Shown: piece after piece, positions 5,701-32,100 of the stretch
How the letters are laid out: each line of letters begins with the position of its first letter
Numbering within the stretch: the first letter of the stretch is position 1
Assembly (NCBI GenBank): GCA_013365325.1
Contig: JABVXV010000086.1
Location: 62,001-126,000 of the forward strand
Source of the DNA: Dipetalonema caudispina
Lineage: Eukaryota > Nematoda > Chromadorea > Rhabditida > Onchocercidae
Reading direction: 5' to 3'
Length of the DNA: 64,000 bases
Notes under the pieces: generated by a model
Databases searched by the model: none
Seen by the model: the letters and a program-made list of their open reading frames with translations, nothing else
What the model was told of the DNA's origin: nothing
Position numbers and translations under genes: made by a program

Positions 5701-6484
5701 AGGCTTATGATATTAGCTGTTGAAATAATTTCATCTATTTTAACAACCCAAATAGAAAAAAAGATATTATTGAACAATCAATAAATAGCAATGATGCCAT
5801 TTTTGTATTGAAATAATTCTTCTTCTGTCGTATTTTTAATACTGACAATGGTTTTTTCTTTTTTTATTTTGATTGGCTATTCATTTGCCCAATACAACAA
5901 ATAGAGAAAGTTAGCTGTTGTATTACGTAAGTGAAAAGTATGGTATTTGTCATATGATCCCTTCGTTGTCGTACTCTCGTAAATAAAAAGTTACATCATC
6001 TTCTTTTCTTACCTTTGACCTCGAATTCTTTCCCCAAATTCGACTGTTTTCGTTTTTGGTTTCTGCCAAAAAAGAATGAATGTGAAATTATTTATTCATT
6101 TCGATTCATAAAATTTATGATAGCATATGATACAGAAAAATAATTGGATATTGTTGCAAAAAAAAACAATAATAAATAATACGGAAATCAATAAGAAGTC
6201 TATAAAAATTGAACTTCCGCATATTTCCTCGTATCTTTTCCTCATCTTTACCGAATTACTTTAGCTATGATAATCTGGTCATGATATTTCCAATCGTTTT
6301 CTGCTACAACATTTTTTTCGGCTTAAATTATTTATCCGATTTGGTCGATCATGAAATCATACAACATTCTGTGCTATAACAGTTTCGGAAAAACATATTT
6401 TTATTCTTTTCCTTGGCTCATTTTTTTCTTGTCCAATAAAAACGAAACATTATAATATAGATCGGTACAAGGGAAAAGCATGAT

Positions 6485-6735
6485 TCATTGAATTTGTGGC
6501 TCTTGGAGAGCCGTTTGAAAGGCACTCTTATTAACTTGAGCAATTAAAAATTTCGTTATGGTACCATGCAGCATACAATGCCGCTTCATTTCGTAGGTTG
6601 CCAGGTTTATCACGTCTTCAAAAACAATTTGTACAAAATTGAGCAATACGGCTAACCGGAAGTTAAAAGAACCTGGCCCGTACGGTAAACCCACTGAAAG
6701 AAGTCGGTGCTTTGGTGAGGTGGCATTTCCTCCAT
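6485..6735 (-). pseudogene. Divergent histone-fold gene (H2A/H2B-like) with an apparent one-base frameshift
   Basis: From 6694 down to the stop at 6485 the minus strand encodes a long amphipathic helix (LAVLLNFVQIVFEDVINLA), a short loop with a Thr-Ile pair, and a second helix. This is the alpha2-L2-alpha3 order of a core histone. The helix can be aligned with H2A ([14 protein letters not shown]) or with H2B ([16 protein letters not shown]); I cannot decide between them. It ends after about 18 further residues, so an H2A-type docking tail would be missing. An ATG at 6735 lies 52 nt past a TATA box (6794-6787). Its frame gives STDFFQWVYRTG, which could be helix alpha1, but stops at 6652. The two frames would join if the A4 run at 6665-6668 had one more base. 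Alternatives: base-call error, true pseudogene, or an unrecognised intron ending at TTCTTTCAG just before 6694. Confidence 0.42.
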
Positions 6736-6786
6736 TGCAGCTACGAATGGTACCAAAACAGTGTTTGGAAAGAAGGTGAGTATGAC

Positions 6787-6794
6787 TTTTTATA
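6787..6794 (-). promoter_or_regulatory. Putative TATA box of the minus-strand histone-fold gene
   Basis: The minus strand reads TATAAAAA here, 52 nt before the ATG at 6735. This spacing is close to that of the plus-strand partner (TATA 7288-7295, ATG 7354). No transcript evidence is available. Confidence 0.4.
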
Positions 6795-7287
6795 GCTTCG
6801 TAAGTGGGAGGTGATTAGGGGAAAGGTCAAGCTAGAGAAAAGAAGGAAGAGAAAAAAAGAAGGGAAAAGTACAAAAAGTGTATTGCTATCTATGAGGGTA
6901 TTGAATGTAGGACAGAGTATCCGATCAATAGTAGGGTGTGACCTCTGGTCAATAGTAGGTATGATTTTTTGGCAGGGAAACAAAACTTCAATTTTGGAAT
7001 GTATTGAGGTAACAATTTTAATTTAGTGCATTTTTAATATTTAATTAATTATCTGCTCCTTCATACTGAGGGTGAAACTATTGTAGTTTTATGATGAAAA
7101 AAAAAATGAGAAATGAATAAAATAATGTTGGGATTTATTCGCTATTAATATTGTTAATTACACAGTAGTCGAAAGAAATTGTGATAGTAAACAATTATTA
7201 CTCACTTTTAAGATATGGTAACATATTTTATTGGTAGATTTTTCTCCAATTCACAATGAAATAATGAACGAAGTTTAAATTAAAAAT

Positions 7288-7295
7288 TATATAAA
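7288..7295 (+). promoter_or_regulatory. Putative TATA box of the H2B-like gene
   Basis: TATATAAA lies 58 nt before the ATG at 7354, a spacing that suits a short-leader histone-type gene. An acceptor-like TTTTCCAG ends at 7332 between the two, so a trans-spliced leader is also possible. Confidence 0.4.
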
Positions 7296-7353
7296 ATGAA
7301 CCATCGTTATATATTTTCAAAAAATTTTCCAGTAGTTCCGATGTTTACTGCAT

Positions 7354-7689
7354 ATGAAAACGGGACGAAGACTGCGACGAAAGAAGATACGATTTTCGCG
7401 GAAGCGACGTCGAAAGAATCGAACTACTTCAAGTACATCATACTCAGGAATACCGAAATCTTATTCGGCGAAGATTTTTGGGGCACTGAAATCGCTCGAT
7501 CGGGCAAGTGTAACACAAGCCCAGCAATTAATGAACCAGTTTGTGAATGCAATGTTTCAACGATCAGCACAGGATGCCCTCAATGTAAATCATCTTCAAC
7601 CTCCTACATATTACTTATTCACCGTACGATTGACCCACAATCAAACGATCGGTCGAGTTGCAGCTACCAATCAACCACCATATCATTGA
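7354..7689 (+). CDS. Highly divergent H2B-like histone with Arg-rich N-terminal tail
   Basis: An intronless frame of 111 residues. Residues 1-24 are very basic (RRLRRKK, RKRRRKNR). From about residue 36 the sequence follows H2B: SYSAKIFGALKSL matches the alpha1 segment [13 protein letters not shown] of the ordinary H2B in this window, and QLMNQFVNAMFQRSAQDA matches alpha2 ([17 protein letters not shown]). A shortened loop and a weaker FTVRL segment (alpha3, TAVRL in H2B) follow. The usual C-terminal Lys/Ser helix is replaced by a Gln/Pro-rich end. The pattern recalls sperm- or testis-type H2B variants with protamine-like tails, but no named family is recognised. It is divergently paired with the histone-fold gene at 6485-6735. 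An out-of-frame ATG at 7341 opens an overlapping 151-codon frame (to 7793); the histone similarity favours the 7354 start. Homology is firm, expression and role are inference. Confidence 0.68.
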   Translation: MKTGRRLRRKKIRFSRKRRRKNRTTSSTSYSGIPKSYSAKIFGALKSLDRASVTQAQQLMNQFVNAMFQRSAQDALNVNHLQPPTYYLFTVRLTHNQTIGRVAATNQPPYH

Positions 7690-8584
7690 TTATCAGATGG
7701 TTCCGTCGAAGAGATGTCACCCGGTTATTGTCGATTACTAGGCCACTTTCTTATAACTATTTGATCAATTTGTGTTATCACTTTTCTCGGTGATAGTACA
7801 TGATTAACATTCTGATTGTATCTCTTCTTTCAAACGATTCTGATTCTATTCATCCATCTGTTGAAAAAATCCAGCTAGGCTTTTTTGAAATTATTCTAAG
7901 TGCCAATAGTACCATAATACCATTATCAATATAAAGTTGTAATTATCATCTGTATTCTGATAATCAGCGAATGGATAAGAACAGTTTTCATTGCATTAAT
8001 GTATCATATTTTTAAATGTATCATATTTTTACTGTTGTATCCAACTGTCAGTGACAATTAAAGATAAGCCCACTTCTATTTCGGTGACCGATTTTGTCTG
8101 TCAGGGCAACGGAATAACCCTTGATATGCAGCCTTGGTGCGATTACTCTTACATTGGATAGCAAACCTTCGAATTTTATATAATTCTAGTAGAACCCATA
8201 CTTTCATGTATTAATGCTATACATCCAAATCGGCTTCAATTAATTTAACTTTATTCATTGCAGAAAGAAACATATTAGAGAACATGAGAACAACATGATT
8301 CTGATGAATTAATACAAGGAATAGCACGCCCAGGCCAACACTCATTAGACAAATTCCTAGGTAAATGGCCTATAGAGGGGAAACACTGGTATGACTTCCA
8401 TGACTTTGAAATGTCAACATACACTGCATCATAACAGTGAAAATCATAAGCACCAAATTAAAAAGATAAGACTATTTCCAGAAAATATATAGCCCTTCTT
8501 TGTCAATGAACCTCACTCCTAACAAATCATGATGAGATCATTTCCAGAAAATTTCTGACTACACTGAAAATTAAGTGCATAAAA
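7690..8584. other. Spacer between H2B-like gene and H2B
   Basis: This holds the 3' ends of the H2B-like gene (+) and of H2B (-). I looked for the 16-nt stem-loop typical of replication-dependent histone mRNAs next to both stop codons and did not see one. No other gene is apparent. Confidence 0.55.
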
Positions 8585-11489
<2,905 letters not shown>

Positions 11490-14400
11490 ATTTAAATATA
11501 CGTGAATGGCAAGGACAAAAAAAAAAAAAAAGAAGTGGCTGATACGTGAAGGATAAATTAGAAAGACGTAGCGGATAACAATAACAACAAACGTGATGGT
11601 TATATGATTTTTTTGTATTTCTTTATTTCTTTTTTTTTTTTTTTTCTTCTATAATGTAATTTCATAATTTAACTTTAATTAATTAAAATCATTAAAAGTT
11701 TTATTCATATAGTTATAGTAGAGCATTTTTAATGGATTTTCAAAATTAAACTTTAGTTCGATACAAACATCTAATAATCAATCGATTAATTACTAAAATT
11801 GTTAGTATGATGTGCTATTGTTTGTCAATGAAAATTGAAGTAAGCATGATTAAGCATTAATTCATATCTAAGAAATTATCCATAAATGATGATTGAAGTG
11901 ATTTTGAAAGTGCTTTTTAAAATTGTTTAATTTTCTTTTTTTGATGAGTGGAAAAGGAATAAATCGACAGAATTATTCCTCTAATATAAACATGAAATTG
12001 AAATGAAATGATGATTTATTGTATTGGTTTTTAATGTTTGCATTGATCTCGGGCATTATTAACATATTAACATTGTATTTTTATAAATCAAATAAAATTT
12101 GAATTGTTGAATACAAAACATTTATCAGTGAACAAAAATGAGTGTAACAAATTTTTGTGATAAATGAATACTAAGCAAATGTGATAAATTGCAAATATTT
12201 CCATGTTATCACTAATTCTTCACTTTTTATCATCTTAACTGTTCGTGTTATCAGTTCTTTAATTTATTTCTGAAGAAAGGTTAGTAAAAGTTAAATATCT
12301 GGGAGAAAGTGTAAAAGTACTGTAGTGATAAACTCAATCTTTGTCTTTTTTATCAATTAGACAATTTATCTTATCAGTTACTGAAAATACAATATCTGTT
12401 GTAGCTAATTTGTTTCTGAAAGAAGATTGATAAATTGCTTTCAAATTGATAGTAATTAGAATAAAAGTGACCATTAAAAATAAATATTCATTGATAAAAT
12501 AGAATTTTGACACTTAATACATTCGGATAGGAGATAATCCATTATCGTATATATCAGGAAATAGCGAAGAAGTTCATTGTTAAAGATATGCAAATGTTTA
12601 ATGTGTAAAAAAAACATTGATACACGTTGAAATTTTGACGTAACGTACGCTAGATGTATATTTTAAAGAAAATATTATCAGTCAAAATATTATTTGCAAG
12701 AAAAAGAATTAATTGTTTTTGATAATTTTTAGTTCAGAGAATACATGGTGATATTATTATTAACTAATTAATTACAGTAATAAAAAAATTGAACAATTTC
12801 CGATATTAGTTAAGTATATACATGTAAAAATTGTCAACAATATATTAATGATCATAAGGATAGCTTCTTTTTTTTTTCTTATCATTATTAATTAGGCATT
12901 TCATTTAAGTTATTTAAAATTGTATGAACTAACACATGATCAATGAACTGATAACTGCATGATAAAATTTGAGTTCTGAATTACATTTTGATTGTAATTT
13001 CATTTCATTTCACAATTGCTAAAATTGATATTTCACCAATTTCATTGACATTGAGAGCTGTTTAGTAATCCGTATTTCAGGAATTCCTATCCGTAATTTA
13101 TTTAATAGCTGGAAATGCATAATGAAAATGTTAGCAATAATTACAAGGGTAACGATATCAATTTGAATAATAACAATAATAATAGTTATAGTTTAACTAA
13201 TAGCAATAATAAGAAGACTTAAAAAGATGAGTGGAAAAGTTTTACGAATTTTGATTATATTCAAAACGATTTATTAAGTTTAAAATTGATAAATAGTGTT
13301 TAGTATTCGTTCTATAAGTCTAAAATTTCATAGCTTCCATATCATCAATATTGACCTTTGTTATTGTTAATTCTTGACTTGCTCAAATTCTGAATGTCAA
13401 AATTTACAAATTATAAAAATGAAAAAGCTACTATAGTTGAAATGATAATTTTCAATTCTTTAATTCTACATCTCTTTTAATAACACTGATTTAAATTTAA
13501 CAAAATATGCAAATTTAAATAATTTCATCAAATTATTTTACTTTATTTCAAGTAACAAATGTATTCTATAAATATGCTTATTACTTGTTGTAGTTAAATG
13601 TTAATTTTAACACATCACTTTTAAATATCACATCAAATTTTATACGCATCATTTAAATATTACATTATCACATTTAATTATACCGATAATTTGAAATTTT
13701 CTCACATATATTTTACTTCATCATCTATTTTTATCTATTAGCACTTAAATTATTTTTCTCCATTTTTCTTTTCTTTGTTTTTTTCTTTTTTTTTTTTTTA
13801 CCAACAAAATTTGAAATGTTTATTCATTATTGTTTTAGAAATTGATAAGCAAATAAAAATCACTGAAATGAATGATCATGGATATTGATTTTCTTCCTTG
13901 GGAAAAATACATACCGTATAGGTTAATTAGACAATTGTAAAATCAAGTTTAATTATCAATGTTATGATGTAGTACAGTAGTATTATTTGGGTAATATCTA
14001 TATTTCTGGTACTGTTATGTTTCATTCGTAATGCTTTGGGAAATATTACTGCATGAGGTTAATCGGGCAATTGTGAAATTAAGTTTAACTATCAATTAAT
14101 TATTACTGAAATATAATATAATTGATAATACTAATATCATATTCATTCATATTATTGTGATGATCGAAAATTTAAAAGAATTTGTTTGAATAATTAATCA
14201 TTAGATAAATTATATATATTTGATAATTTCCTGAAATTATATTCAAGATTGTTACATTTTTGTTAGCATTTATTCTTTTTTCGATTATGTTTTCAGAATG
14301 TAACTTATAAGATTTTAAATAATTCTTCTGAAATAATTAGCAGAAAATAAGTTCCGGTTGATTTCATCTTTTTTTTTTTTTTTTGTTTTCCAGACAAAAC

Positions 14401-25900: not shown

Positions 25901-28900
25901 CGAGGTTGACAGTAATCTCCTTCCTATATCTTATGCATATTTGTCAACGCAACAGTTACGGCATGATTTCCGATCTGGTCCACACTTTGCCTCCATTCAA
26001 CCTCCTAGCTTCCTATCGGCAATACTCAACAATTACTGCAGACACACACACATTTCGCTGCGTTTCATTTGAGCGCGATAGGTCGTTATTCGCTGGGTCA
26101 TTTTTTTCCCCTTCGTTGTTGCAGCGATTATCGTATGATACTGCTTCTGCTTCTTTGTATTGCTACTGCTAATACTAATTCTGTATTGGATTTATCGACT
26201 ACAGTTATGAGCCTGATATTGTTTACTTGTCATGGTTCAACTATTTTGTGATATCCACATTCCTCATTTGATACTTGAGGCATTCCATTTTATTGTTTCT
26301 TGATTGCAAATCCTGATGATGTACATGTTCCTCGTCTTGGCTTAGTGATTTGAATCCTCATTATGTTTAACTAAGACTGGTTGTTGACTTCTGTTAGTTG
26401 TTTGCTGAAGTAGGACTCGATATTGCCTTCTTTCTCGGTAAATTAGTATATGAGACTTGTAGGTGTAGAAAGTACCCTGTGTTTCTTATCTAGTGTCAAG
26501 TCTTTCAGGAAGCTTACAAAATGTGATTTGTCCCACACTGTTTGGGCATTGCTATTGCCCATCTGATTATTCGCATTACATTACTGATGACCAACGAGTG
26601 GAATCGCTAATGGTTAGTTCCTGATTTATCACTGCTGTTATTCCTTTTCACCTTAGGGAGTGGAAAAGTTTAGTGGGGTGGTACTTTGAGAATTACAACA
26701 GAGTCTAATGTTTGATGTTGCCTATGACTTTCTTCAAGCACTTCGTGTTCTCTCAATATTTATTTCTTATGCTTTTGCTTTATATTCGCCTTATATGCTA
26801 TGATGTCGTTTAGAGCTTGTAATTTAAATGTCGAGCAGTGCATTAAAGGAAATGGTATCCAGAGTTGTTTCAAACCTCGGGTTTTGTTGATTAATATTTG
26901 GCCTTTCTGCAGTTACCAGAGTTTATCGCTTCGTGTCATTTTATACAGCCCAGGTTATATCTAAACACGTCGTTGATTCACGCTGTTACTGGCTCCCATT
27001 AGAACGTTCTAGCAGCATATGGTATAGCTGTAAACTGGTAATATTTGGTGGGATATGTCTATTTGTAAGTTTGTAAGCGACTCTGGACTGCCTCCTTTTT
27101 TCCGCTGCTCGTTGTTACATTTGGTCGTTCTTGAGGTGTGATGTAGTGATAAGTTGAATGTGGATCTTACCATGTCCCGATCTTAGTGTCGAAATGGCTT
27201 GACGCGTATTAGCGTCTTTTTCGTGCTTGCCGACGCGTGCTGTTTGGGATTTCTAGACCACTTGGAACTTAGGATCCACTTTTGACGCCAAAAAATATGT
27301 ACGTTATACCTTGCATTATTGAACAAGTTCTTGAAGCATCTAATCAAATTACACTCCTACGTGTTTAGTCTCATGTCTTCCAATGTACTTCATGTTTGTT
27401 CGTGACAGAGTAGGATTATTTTTGCATCGGCAAACAGATTTTCCGGGACGCAACTATATTATAGGATTCAGGTGGATATATCTAAGAAGAAGCAGAGCGA
27501 AGTAGCATGATACTAAAATTTGCTATTATGGATAGAAAATGTCCCGAGGGGTGTAATTTGATAGCTTGTGTACCGGAAGAAACAACTACACCTTCTGGAG
27601 CATGCTGTGTGTCGGTGGTGAAAGACATGGGTAGTGAGACGTTAGAATTTGAAGGTCGTATCACTATTCTGTTTTTCGCCTCGTATCACGGCGACGCCCC
27701 CTTCCTACAATTATAATAATCATCCTGTCCCCAACCGTACTATAAATTCGTCAAGAATAATCTCGATCGACAATACTCACTTTTCGGCGAAGTTGGCTAC
27801 TGCATTAATGTGGACGTGTGTGGAGTGATACGCAATGCGACCTTATTATGTTGCAAAAAACTGCTGTCATTATCAACGCTATGGGATGCTAGTACAGATT
27901 ATGTTCTGCTGTTCCTTTGCAAATATTGGTACCATTATTTCCATGATTGTTAAAGAGAGGTTGGATCAATGGAAATTGGTGCCTTTTTTCATGTTGCGCA
28001 TTGTGCTTAGATGCGTAGTAAGTGAAGTAATCAACAGCTGAAGTTTTGTCTTATTGTTTGGATGGTTTTTCATTTTTATCACTTTTAGTCTGGAATTGTT
28101 TGGCATATGATAGTGCTTGAATTTTTATTCAGGAGAATTGAATTCCAAGCCGAAGTCATCGCATGTGTGTCTATCGTTTTGTGAAAAGTAATCTTGCATT
28201 TTGTATCATAGCTGTTTTGGTGACTTACAGTTATTGTGGACACTAGAATTGGCTATATTAATCCTCTTTACCACTGATGCTGATACGATCTGCAATATGC
28301 GTTAGTGAGAAATATGTCGCCAAAAGCTGCAGAATTTTTCTTCATCTTGTTGGGACGTTCTGGAACAAATAAAGTTAAGAAGGGACAGATTGAAATTACT
28401 ATTTCACATTGTATTATATCATAGATTTAAACATTCCACGAAATGCGAACTAATGTTTTGTTAGCCACCTGATCGCAGCTTGATCCAGGTAAGTATGAAA
28501 CACTGGTGATAAGATCTTAGACACCTGATTGAATCAGTGTTTGTTCTGCAAGTAAGATGTATTTTGAGGAGCAACTTACAAACGATAGTTGATAAGCCGA
28601 AGTGACGGTGCCTCTTTTCATCTTTTTTTTTTTTTTTGAAGGAATTCTCCACTATATTTTTTGCTATATATGGTGTACATATGTAGATGGTTTCAAGGGT
28701 AATTGATATTTATAGCAGTAGCGGTTATCAATATCTATAATGATTCCTTTATGATTGGTATGATAGGATTCGTAGCAGTGATAAGTACAGAGATAGTGAT
28801 AATTGTATTATGGGAGTGATAATAAAATGTGACATTATTGGGACTAGTGCCAGTAACTGTAATAGTAGCAGTGATGATTACAATCGAGATGGTATCGATG

Positions 28901-29125: not shown

Positions 29126-32100
29126 CATCATATTGTTAGGTATTTATTTGGGTTAGGATAAAAGAGCAGATGGGAATATTGCCATTTGGCATCGGACATT
29201 GAAGAGTAATCATAATGTGATAGGATAGGATCGGTATGGGTAACGATGATATATATATATATATATATATGTGAAGTGTGTGAATGAGAATAAATACGTG
29301 AAATGTTGTCAGTGTAGAGAAGCGCGAAATATAAAATAGGGGAGACAAAAGGCATTATTCCTTTTTAATGTTGTTCAAGACTGTCATATGTAGGAAATGT
29401 ATCCGACAAGGATGATAGTAGTAGTAGAAGTCGTAGTTGTAGTAGTAGTAGTAAAGAGAGTATGAGGAAGGTGAATGTTGGATGAAGGAAGAAGAAGAAA
29501 GGAAGCTTCATGGGAGAACAAAAAGTTCTTCCCTCTCCTATTGCAACCAATATCACAGCTGCTTGAGAGTATGATAGGATAGAAAGGGTACGACAGGTGT
29601 CCCTGAAGCAAATGGCGCCTCATTTCCTTCTTTTCCTCTTCCTCCTCCTCCTCTTCACCCCCTTCCCTTTTGCTTTTCATTTTCCTCCACCCTGATTCAG
29701 CTTCATTTTCCTTGGTGAGAATGAGGAGGATAAGATTTTAATAGTATGTAGATGAAGAAGCCGGTATTACGAATAACTCTTCGTTCATTGTATGTTTCTA
29801 TTTCTAAATACCTTATGCATAAAGAAGTGCACTATTGGGGTGTGGTTGTTTTTTCTTTTTTTTTTTTTTTTCCTTCATTGTTGAGAAAGAAGGTGAACAA
29901 GGCATCGGCAATATATTTACTGTTGTAAGACATATATATACATGTTTATGTATATTAGTTATAAAGATTGTTAAAGAGTGTTTAGACTTCTTTTCCTATA
30001 CCTGAGATATATCATTCTATTTTTCACTCTTGCAGTTGATACCATTTCCTATTACCAACTTTCACTTCCATTACCACTTATTCTAGTCTTAGTTTTTACC
30101 TCTTTATTGGTGTATTTTTTTTTTTTTTTTTTACTTTAAATTTGACGATTCACAGAACGACTTTTTTTCTCTTTTTTTTTCTTGAGATTTATTGCCCTTT
30201 TTTTCTTCCATTGTAAGTTTGAGTTCTCTTCCTCTCTTATTCCCTCTTCCATGCTGCGATTTGTTTATAACGTGTATTACGGTTAGTGTGTAGATTCTTT
30301 TGACAAAATTTTCAGGTTTCGTGTTAGGAAAAGGAGATTTGTAGACGAGTCATGTTAATGGTACATTGGGAATCGTTCATCACAGTTGTCAGTTATCAGC
30401 TGAAATTATGCTCAAACAGTTCATCTTATCAGATTGATTCGAAAGTTGGGTTAGCACTTGTTTGGATAAGATTTGGTAATTTGGAGAGGAGCTAGAGCTG
30501 TGAATAATCTGAGCATTACTGGTAACGGTGTGGTATCCGAAGAGAGTTCAGGATAAATGAGTCTCGTTAGGTCAAGTTGAGATGGGTGGTTGTGCCGATA
30601 GGTAAAGGTGATACGTCTTTACACTTTATTTTTGGGAAGGTAAGGATGAGGTGTTTCTTTAGCGTGCAACTGATTGTTTATCCGTAATTGGTATGCTTGT
30701 TTGTGATTTGGGTTGATTTGATTACTTTTGGAATGAAGTTTCGTTCCTAGCAGGACATATATATGTATATAACTGACGATATTTACCAAGTAAAGTGTGT
30801 TATCTTTAAATTGTTTGCAACTGCATATATCATGTTGTTCTACTTGCTTGAGTTGTTAATATTTACATGCACAATATGAATTTCAAACTTGTTTCATTAG
30901 AGTTTTCTTGGTGTTGATTTATGAAATCTTGCTGTGTTATCTTTTGGGAAAATCCTGGGCAACAGTTCTTGTTCACTGATGGTTTTCTTTTTCGAGAATT
31001 TGTCGAAAAGGACTTCTCCAACACGTCAAAGTGGTCGGTGATGTGTCGCTAAATGAAATTCATATCACAGCCAGCTTTGATGTGTTGTGCGCTTGTCGTT
31101 CCATCGTAACATGCATAATTAAGCATTAGGTACACTTCAGTCTTGACCTATCGTCGTTGTTTGACCCTGTTTCTTAATGATATGTCGATTATGCTACTCT
31201 ATTTGTTTGTTCAATTTGTTGTTACGTATAGACTTTGGAGACACGATATGAAACAATTTAGCTGTGAGCTGCTCTATTTTGATGCTACACTTGTGTGCAG
31301 AGGGCTAGTAGATGCATCAGTAATTGGCTTGTTTTGCAAAATATCTCCGAAATTGTAATCGATTAGATATTTTGATTATAATGTTAAATGAATGTAGTGG
31401 AAATGTATATTTCATATGTCTAAATTTGAGAATGATCTTAAAAAGGATCTACATATTCGTTGTTCTTGTTACGTTATCATTTCAAAGTATATTGTATTGT
31501 AATATTGCTTTTTTGTCCTCTTCTTGTTCTGTCTTTCCAAACTTTGAAACTAATATTGTTGCAAGTTGCATGTAAATGGTGACGGCAATCTCTTGTTCCG
31601 TCTTTTCAAAAAATTATTTGAGTTGATAATAAATAAAAGTGTCGAGAACTTATGTTAACCATATGGGGTGTAATTCACAATTATGAGAGATTCTGTGTTT
31701 AAATTTGCTGTTTGCTGGTTGAAAATAGCCTTCACCGGAATTTGCATATATTGAAATGTTGAAAAGAACGAGGTTGCTGAAGAAAAAGGAGAGAGTAGAT
31801 ACCCGACAGGGGATGGATGGACAAAGAACAGTGTAACTAAGAAGATATACGGGATATATAATGCTCATAATGTTTTCAGCTTCTCTGCAAAATTGTCACA
31901 TGGCCGGGAGCGTTGACGAAGAGATGGATTTTCGAAAATTTTATCGGCAGATATAGCATATTATTGCAAGATACAGCGTTTCATATCCGGAAAGTAATAC
32001 TAAAATTTTTATTTTCTCCTAAAATTTTAATATGGTACTTGAAACATACCTAAAAGTTGCACCAATTAGGACAACAAATTGTGAAAGGACATTGATGCAG

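What the first reader, a model, noticed from the sequence alone, without database searches (positions are those of the whole stretch)
6485..7689. A divergent pair of highly diverged histone-fold genes beside the canonical histone cluster
Two genes face away from each other, 618 bp apart (ATG to ATG), each with a TATA box about 52-58 nt before its ATG. The plus gene is clearly H2B-like (SYSAKIFGALKSL, MNQFVNAMFQR) with an Arg-rich tail. The minus gene has a histone-like alpha2-L2-alpha3 order and a very short C-terminus. The arrangement parallels the ordinary divergent H2B/H2A pair 1.2 kb away. This suggests an old duplication of a bidirectional H2A/H2B unit turned into a specialised, possibly germline or sperm chromatin dimer. 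I recognise no named family for either.
Basis: partly seen in the sequence, partly recalled or inferred. Interest (0 to 1): 0.82.

Follow-up and report, generated by a model that had tools for sequence, protein, structure and literature searches.

The report
Odd worm H2B beside histone relic
A filarial worm carries a strongly changed copy of the DNA-packing protein H2B that is conserved in related parasites, but its supposed partner gene looks like the remains of an ordinary histone gene rather than a working second protein.

Summary
Half right. The plus gene (7354-7689, 111 aa) is real: ten database proteins match it, 8 with a filarial species named. Its helix-1/helix-2 region is H2B-like (hhalign E 9.6e-7; PDB profile search). 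It has an Arg-rich tail, no recognisable H2B helix 3 or C-terminal helix, and a nearly invariant 25-residue C-terminus instead. The minus gene as described is not one reading frame: 6735 to 6485 is 251 nt, the ATG frame stops after 27 codons, and the histone-looking stretch lies in another frame with no ATG before it. It shows no significant similarity to H2A, H2B, H3 or H4, and the one protein search found only its own sequence. The minus frame reads through it. Best reading: a filarial H2B variant without stem-loop, beside a decayed replication-dependent histone gene, perhaps its former H2A partner. The sperm-dimer idea is untested.

The parts
7354..7689 (+). H2B-like gene, 111 aa, no intron in the CDS: Arg/Lys-rich tail (1-34), H2B-like helix 1 and helix 2 (35-82), conserved 25-residue C-terminus (86-110)
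7288..7295 (+). TATA-like box upstream of the H2B-like gene
   Evidence: consensus match only, in AT-rich DNA
7325..7332 (+). possible splice acceptor TTTTCCAG just upstream of the ATG (5' UTR intron or trans-splice site)
   Evidence: read; protein P0001 reads an upstream frame FFQLFRCLPHM, consistent with a TTTCAG-like acceptor there; inference
6485..6814 (-). open frame holding the histone-looking stretch; no ATG upstream of it; its stop lies beyond the hairpin
6652..6735 (-). ATG frame of the minus locus, 27 codons then stop
6786..6794 (-). TATA box of the minus locus (TATAAAAAG)
   Evidence: resembles the TATA region of the genome's stem-loop H3 gene, only marginally above other places in the window (25 against 24)
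6474..6517 (-). replication-dependent histone 3' stem-loop (hairpin 6512-6498) followed by a downstream element (about 6491-6478)
8585..9166 (-). canonical H2B, two exons, no stem-loop found downstream (context)
10102..10482 (+). canonical H2A, no stem-loop found downstream (context)

Best explanation
Two different things lie side by side. (1) Shown: the plus gene is an H2B-derived histone variant, found so far only in filarial worms, that keeps the first two histone-fold helices by sequence and an Arg-rich tail, and whose C-terminal half is a conserved segment not recognisable as H2B. Inferred: it is expressed outside S phase, because it has no detectable histone stem-loop; it pairs through helices 1 and 2 with a normal H2A; it enters or contacts chromatin and presents an altered surface because the C-terminal helix of H2B seems absent. 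Germline use is likely by analogy with other fast-changing H2B variants but not shown. (2) The minus locus is the remains of a replication-dependent histone gene. Its stem-loop and downstream element, and possibly its TATA region, survive, but no intact histone reading frame does. By position (mirror image of the neighbouring H2B/H2A pair) the lost gene was most likely H2A; that identity is inferred, not shown.
For: Plus gene: 10 database proteins, 8 with a filarial species named; C-terminus 93% mean pairwise identity against 58% in the tail (36 pairs of 9 sequences); PDB hmmsearch best E 7.9e-10 (a chain with two matched H2B stretches), next 8.3e-5, all 60 rows shown of 176 naming H2B; hhalign to four H2B sequences E 9.6e-7 over residues 35-81; rank 3 of 2494 ORFs with an H2B profile, behind the two canonical H2B exons. 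Minus locus: Rfam Histone3 match, E 0.0036 in 7 kb; the element shares 36 of 44 positions with that of the H1-like gene, 34 of 44 with H3, 33 of 43 with H2B; patterns made from these occur once in the window against 0.01 and 0.00 expected; 251-nt frame break; the frame's stop begins 11 nt past the hairpin, whereas C. [quoted passage not shown] only its own sequence found in the protein search. A clear H3 relic with two in-frame stops lies upstream of the stem-loop H2B gene on contig C369, so decayed histone copies occur in this genome.
Against: The minus 3' element is far better kept than any coding similarity, which is odd for old neutral decay and could mean the locus is still used; one stem pair differs on both sides (C-G to U-A), compatible with selection, though the loop is one base shorter. 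Its Rfam score is below the gathering score (23.7 against 34), as for the genome's H3 (31.7) and H2B (26.2) elements; weak matches of this family are common: the same search gave matches at E <= 10 in 14 of 14 prokaryote control genomes, none over the cut-off, and one of 22.8 bits on C2 in this genome without a core-histone hit nearby, so the case rests on likeness to the genome's own elements. The H2A identity of the relic has no sequence support. For the plus gene, Pfam's Histone model matched none of 10 members at E <= 10 (though UniRef names the O. flexuosa member 'Histone domain-containing protein'), and the predicted model is poor (pLDDT 57.5), so a histone fold beyond helix 2 is unproven.
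Confidence: 0.62

Rival explanations
1. One reading: an old duplicated H2A/H2B unit that now makes a specialised histone dimer, both genes working, perhaps in the male germline.
For: Mirror-image layout with the canonical H2B/H2A pair; stem-loop and TATA of the minus locus preserved; histone-looking helix stretch with weak H2B and H4 resemblance, shuffle fractions 0.027 and 0.038.
Against: No single frame from the ATG; the frame reads through the hairpin; no hit in Pfam or to PDB histones; frameshift-tolerant comparison with H2A, H2B, H3 and H4 within the null range; single-sequence model is one long helix; no homologue found, although the neighbouring H2B-like gene has ten.
Confidence: 0.12
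2. The minus locus is an active stem-loop-type transcript that makes only a short peptide (27 codons) or works as RNA; the histone-like stretch is chance.
For: Well-kept 3' processing signal and a TATA box, with no long frame closing before the hairpin; 27-codon ATG frame.
Against: Hairpin loop one base shorter than in the three other genes; no expression data; the motif TTTTGGCGGGAAA (E2F-like, recalled) of the H1-like and H3 promoters is absent from 6736-7353.
Confidence: 0.2
3. The plus protein is no longer a chromatin histone: only the helix-1/helix-2 part survives, and the conserved C-terminus serves another role.
For: Alignment to H2B stops at residue 81-82; the C-terminus is the most conserved part; the mammalian H2B.L and H2B.N variants are discussed as possibly non-nucleosomal (PMC8857922, passages seen).
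Against: Strong R/K tail with 0-1 acidic residues in the nine tails counted suits DNA binding.
Confidence: 0.2

Closest known systems
Mammalian H2B.N and other germline H2B variants (PMC8857922, passages seen)
   Same: Diverged H2B with shortened or changed C-terminus, lineage-restricted, faster-changing than core H2B
   Different: Different lineage, so presumably of independent origin; no germline expression shown here; the filarial C-terminus is not just truncated but carries a near-invariant segment of its own
Canonical filarial H2B (window 9166-8585; C369)
   Same: KSYS..IF..LK helix 1 and MNQFVNAMFQRSA helix 2 align with H2B helix 1 and [13 protein letters not shown]
   Different: No recognisable helix 3 or C-terminal helix; no intron in the CDS (the window H2B has one); no stem-loop (the C369 H2B has one)
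Stem-loop histone genes of this genome (H1-like and H3 on C232, H2B on C369)
   Same: Hairpin, flanks and downstream element resemble those of the minus locus
   Different: The minus locus has no intact histone frame and a loop one base shorter
Mammalian short H2A variants (recalled; listed)
   Same: Proposed parallel: small, fast-changing H2A partner
   Different: The minus locus shows no H2A similarity above chance

Membership tests
Histone H2B (plus gene) | H2B-type helix 1, loop 1 and helix 2 sequence | tested here: met
Histone H2B (plus gene) | Loop 2, helix 3 and C-terminal helix | tested here: inconclusive
   profile alignments end at residue 81-82; model of residues 83-111 low confidence, strands rather than helix
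Histone H2B (plus gene) | Curated Pfam Histone match (a detection rule, not a biological definition) | tested here: not met
   0 of 10 members match at E <= 10; UniRef nevertheless names P0006 'Histone domain-containing protein'
Histone H2B (plus gene) | Forms a dimer with H2A inside nucleosomes | not testable with these tools
   needs biochemistry
Replication-dependent histone gene (minus locus) | 3' hairpin with histone flanks and downstream element | tested here: met
   (below Rfam gathering score, like the genome's H3 and H2B elements; loop one base short)
Replication-dependent histone gene (minus locus) | Intact histone reading frame ending before the hairpin | tested here: not met
   of 23 one-intron models of at least 45 aa, 7 end before the hairpin, with best scores 23-26 against H2A, H2B and H4, in the range of shuffle means
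H2A or short H2A variant (minus locus) | H2A sequence similarity | tested here: not met
   scores at or below the shuffle mean
Sperm-specific or germline histone | Germline-restricted expression | not testable with these tools
   no RNA data available

The most novel reading that the evidence does not exclude
The minus locus is still a working S-phase-type histone transcription unit whose protein (a tail-less minimal histone fold) changes so fast that its family is unrecognisable, made through an exon structure or frame use not yet seen, and it pairs with the conserved H2B-like protein as a filarial-only histone dimer.
Probability: 0.1. Interest if true: 0.8.

Novelty: new variant of a known kind. 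Interest (0 to 1): 0.47.

Why it matters
Core H2B is one of the slowest-changing proteins (recalled), and no paper listed by ten text searches describes, by title or abstract start, an H2B variant of filarial worms (several listings were capped, and subscription papers and supplements were not searchable). A filarial H2B that keeps the dimerisation helices but has a conserved C-terminal segment of its own would be a natural experiment on which parts of H2B chromatin needs. The neighbouring stem-loop relic is a trace of how a histone pair may be taken apart.

Tried and rejected
Minus locus as H2A: rejected for lack of signal. As H4 (eye resemblance [10 protein letters not shown] against EDVINLATY): shuffle fraction 0.038 for the 69-codon piece, 0.05 and 0.093 for longer pieces, and the H4 profile search did not list it; not accepted. 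Splicing from an upstream exon (donor 7205, acceptor 6695) is the best-scoring of 23 one-intron models of at least 45 aa and gives 75 aa in frame, but it still reads through the hairpin. Programmed frameshift: considered by eye only; no standard slippery site seen. Codon-usage coding test: training set too small (14 ORFs), and negative and positive sets overlapped; not used. Loa LOAG_10469 (P0003) carries a 45-residue N-terminal extension that I read as an antisense reading over the minus locus; it aligns only over 32-45 nt around and upstream of ATG 6735 and barely above chance (20.2 against a maximum of 19.9 in 20 shuffles; 10.7 against 9.7 for the next place in the window), so it neither shows nor excludes conservation of the minus coding part. 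The fold comparison of the plus model aligned 7 chains, of which 4 were listed, none titled as a histone; uninformative at this model quality. That of the minus model had nothing to compare. The profile search of the H2B-like family scored only the 7992 candidates sharing most words. An overlapping +2 frame is open through the whole H2B-like gene: 0 of 5000 resamples with histone-gene codon weights were open, but 1.5% of own-codon shuffles are, so only a hint.

Full report
Where we are. The window lies on contig C749 of a 78-Mb assembly. mir-71 and mir-2 hairpins and the homologues found place it among filarial nematodes; the exact species was not identified. PF00125 gave 16 exon-level matches in the whole assembly. 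Searches with the window's own H2A and H2B point to H2A on C749 and C28, an H2A.Z-like gene on C288, a macroH2A-like gene on C333, and H2B on C749 and C369; the variant names are my reading of the translations.

The plus gene. ORF 7354-7689 encodes 111 aa. A single-sequence search of 5.8 billion proteins found 23 candidates, of which 9 had E <= 1, all at 2.7e-28 or better; 7 of the 9 name a species, all filarial: Acanthocheilonema viteae, Loa loa, Cercopithifilaria johnstoni, Setaria digitata, Onchocerca flexuosa, Wuchereria bancrofti, Brugia timori. A profile of ten sequences (the window and these nine) found the same nine plus an Onchocerca volvulus model, and nothing else at E <= 10 among the 7992 candidates scored. 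By sequence it is H2B: phmmer to PDB, best E 1.4e-7 for a chain with two matched stretches, 0.0068-0.033 for the other rows shown (60 of 161); family profile 7.9e-10 for that chain and 8.3e-5 for the next; hhalign to four H2B sequences E 9.6e-7 over residues 35-81, 34% identity; third of 2494 ORFs by an H2B profile, after the two canonical H2B exons. Pfam's Histone model was reported for none of 10 members at E <= 10, although UniRef names the O. flexuosa member 'Histone domain-containing protein'. The family is easily overlooked.

Anatomy of the plus protein. The tail is Arg/Lys-rich: 8-11 R, 4-7 K and 0-1 D/E in each of the nine tails counted; P0007, which lacks the tail, was left out, and the P0001 count includes extra upstream residues. 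Helix 1 and helix 2 regions are 86% and 78% identical on average over 36 pairs, residues 79-85 only 51%, the C-terminal 25 residues 93%. AlphaFold2 on the ten-sequence alignment gives helices 37-46 and 50-77, then strands of low confidence (mean pLDDT 57.5). So the most conserved part is the part that no longer resembles H2B. No histone stem-loop was found downstream; an ATTAAA lies at 8057. This points to polyadenylated, replication-independent expression (inference). The O. volvulus model reads the tail partly in another frame and lacks the conserved C-terminus, so that copy may be broken or misannotated; its DNA was not seen.

The minus locus: the frame problem. The finding's gene runs from ATG 6735 to the stop ending at 6485, 251 nt. 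Three-frame translation shows the ATG frame closing at 6652 (27 codons), while the histone-looking residues are in the frame 6485-6814, which has no ATG before RLAVLL. The database holds a 69-residue reading of the latter frame with a non-ATG start, on three contigs of at most 6959 bases, whereas the window's contig has 211,686 bases; so the break is probably not a local assembly slip (inference; the source is not shown). That search found only this sequence (1 of 3 candidates at E <= 1), although the plus gene, under 1 kb away, has ten matches. Pfam: no family. PDB phmmer at E <= 10: two chains, neither a histone, for the long frame, none for the ATG frame. Profiles over 2494 ORFs: rank 126 for H2B; not listed for H2A or H4. 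Shuffle fractions for the 69-codon piece: H2B 0.027 and H2A 1.0 (300 shuffles), H4 0.038 and H3 0.28 (1000 shuffles). A frameshift-tolerant comparison upstream of the hairpin gave 24, 24, 24 and 29 for H4, H2A, H3 and H2B against null maxima of 35, 32, 40 and 35 in 60 shuffles each, with the H2B-like gene scoring 76 against H2B as a control. AlphaFold2 on the single sequence predicts one 54-residue helix, with no fold match.

The minus locus: what it is. A permissive Rfam scan of 6000-13000 listed 7 matches, the histone 3' stem-loop first, at 6517-6474 minus, 23.7 bits, E 0.0036 (alignment). In eight histone-bearing loci scanned the family matched in two, downstream of H3 (31.7 bits) and of the C369 H2B (26.2 bits). 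A whole-assembly search listed 7 matches, the top three next to an H1-like gene (my reading of its translation), H3 and H2B; the window element was not in that list, probably because only 75 of 11,552 first-look candidates were scored. In that search all 14 prokaryote control genomes also had matches at E <= 10, none over the cut-off, and a 22.8-bit match on C2 lies in a locus without a core-histone hit, so a score near 24 bits alone proves little. What counts is the likeness to the genome's own elements: 36 of 44, 34 of 44 and 33 of 43 aligned positions shared with the H1-like, H3 and H2B elements, including GCCACAAAT and, with H3, the downstream AATGA.TCATGC. Patterns made from these elements occur once in the window and 0.01 or 0.00 times in shuffles, allowing 3 mismatches. 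No match to the family was reported behind the window's canonical H2A, H2B or H4. The hairpin stem is intact with one pair changed on both sides, but the loop has three bases instead of four. The long frame runs through the hairpin and its stop begins at 6487, 11 nt beyond the hairpin end at 6498; C. [quoted passage not shown] So a normally processed mRNA would not contain that stop. Stops before the hairpin are in other frames (the nearest at 6546, 6533 and 6530). Of 23 one-intron models of at least 45 aa, 7 end before the hairpin; their best scores against H2A, H2B and H4 are 23-26, in the range of the shuffle means seen for the minus pieces.

Interpretation. The minus strand carries a TATA box 59 nt before the ATG and a replication-dependent histone 3' end, about 280 nt apart, shorter than the smallest core histone CDS here (H4, 312 nt with stop), and without a recognisable histone frame. 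I read it as the remains of a replication-dependent histone gene. The order minus-locus(-), H2B-like(+), H2B(-), H2A(+) is a mirror image, which makes H2A the likeliest lost partner, but there is no sequence support for that. Decay of such genes has a parallel: upstream of the stem-loop H2B on C369 lies an H3-like stretch with two in-frame stops (48% over 56 aa, E 3e-7). The point against plain decay is that the 3' element is much better kept than the coding part; this keeps the novel case alive at low probability.

How the plus protein may work. Shown: sequence homology to helices 1 and 2 of H2B and a basic tail. Inferred: pairing with canonical H2A, loss of the C-terminal helix, replication-independent deposition, germline role. 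Closest parallels are mammalian germline H2B variants; for H2B.N the authors report C-terminal truncation removing the alpha-C domain and raise a non-nucleosomal function (PMC8857922, passages seen). Of the nematode H2A-variant survey PMC11139335 I saw abstract and outline; a term search of its main text for Brugia, filari, Spirurina, Onchocerc, clade III and short H2A found nothing, though filarial genomes may be among its 108. Ten text searches listed no paper whose title or abstract start describes a filarial H2B variant; three searches listed only part of their hits (25 of 183, 15 of 26), and subscription papers and supplements were not searchable.

Noticed in passing
L004:751-918 (contig C369, upstream of the stem-loop H2B gene): H3-like stretch, 48% over 56 aa with two in-frame stops: a histone H3 relic, or a divergent H3 read across breaks.
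   Followed up: partly
window 7296-7793 plus: A second frame (+2) is open through the whole H2B-like gene; 1.5% of own-codon shuffles are open too, 0.03-0.8% with general codon weights, 0 of 5000 with histone-gene weights. Possible overlap coding or chance.
   Followed up: partly
P0011 (Onchocerca volvulus): Its model reads the H2B-like tail partly in another frame and lacks the conserved C-terminus; the gene may be broken or misannotated there.
   Followed up: no
window 8585-9166, 10102-10482, 11178-11489: Canonical H2B (with intron), H2A and H4 in the window show no histone stem-loop match, unlike the H1-like, H3 and H2B genes on C232/C369; possibly the polyadenylated set.
   Followed up: partly
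L043 1579-2154 minus (C232): Linker-histone-like (H1, by my reading) gene that ends in a replication-dependent stem-loop; its promoter and that of H3 share TTTTGGCGGGAAA upstream of the TATA box.
   Followed up: no
window 27613-27685 and 31019-31089 plus: mir-71 and mir-2 precursors 3.3 kb apart.
   Followed up: no
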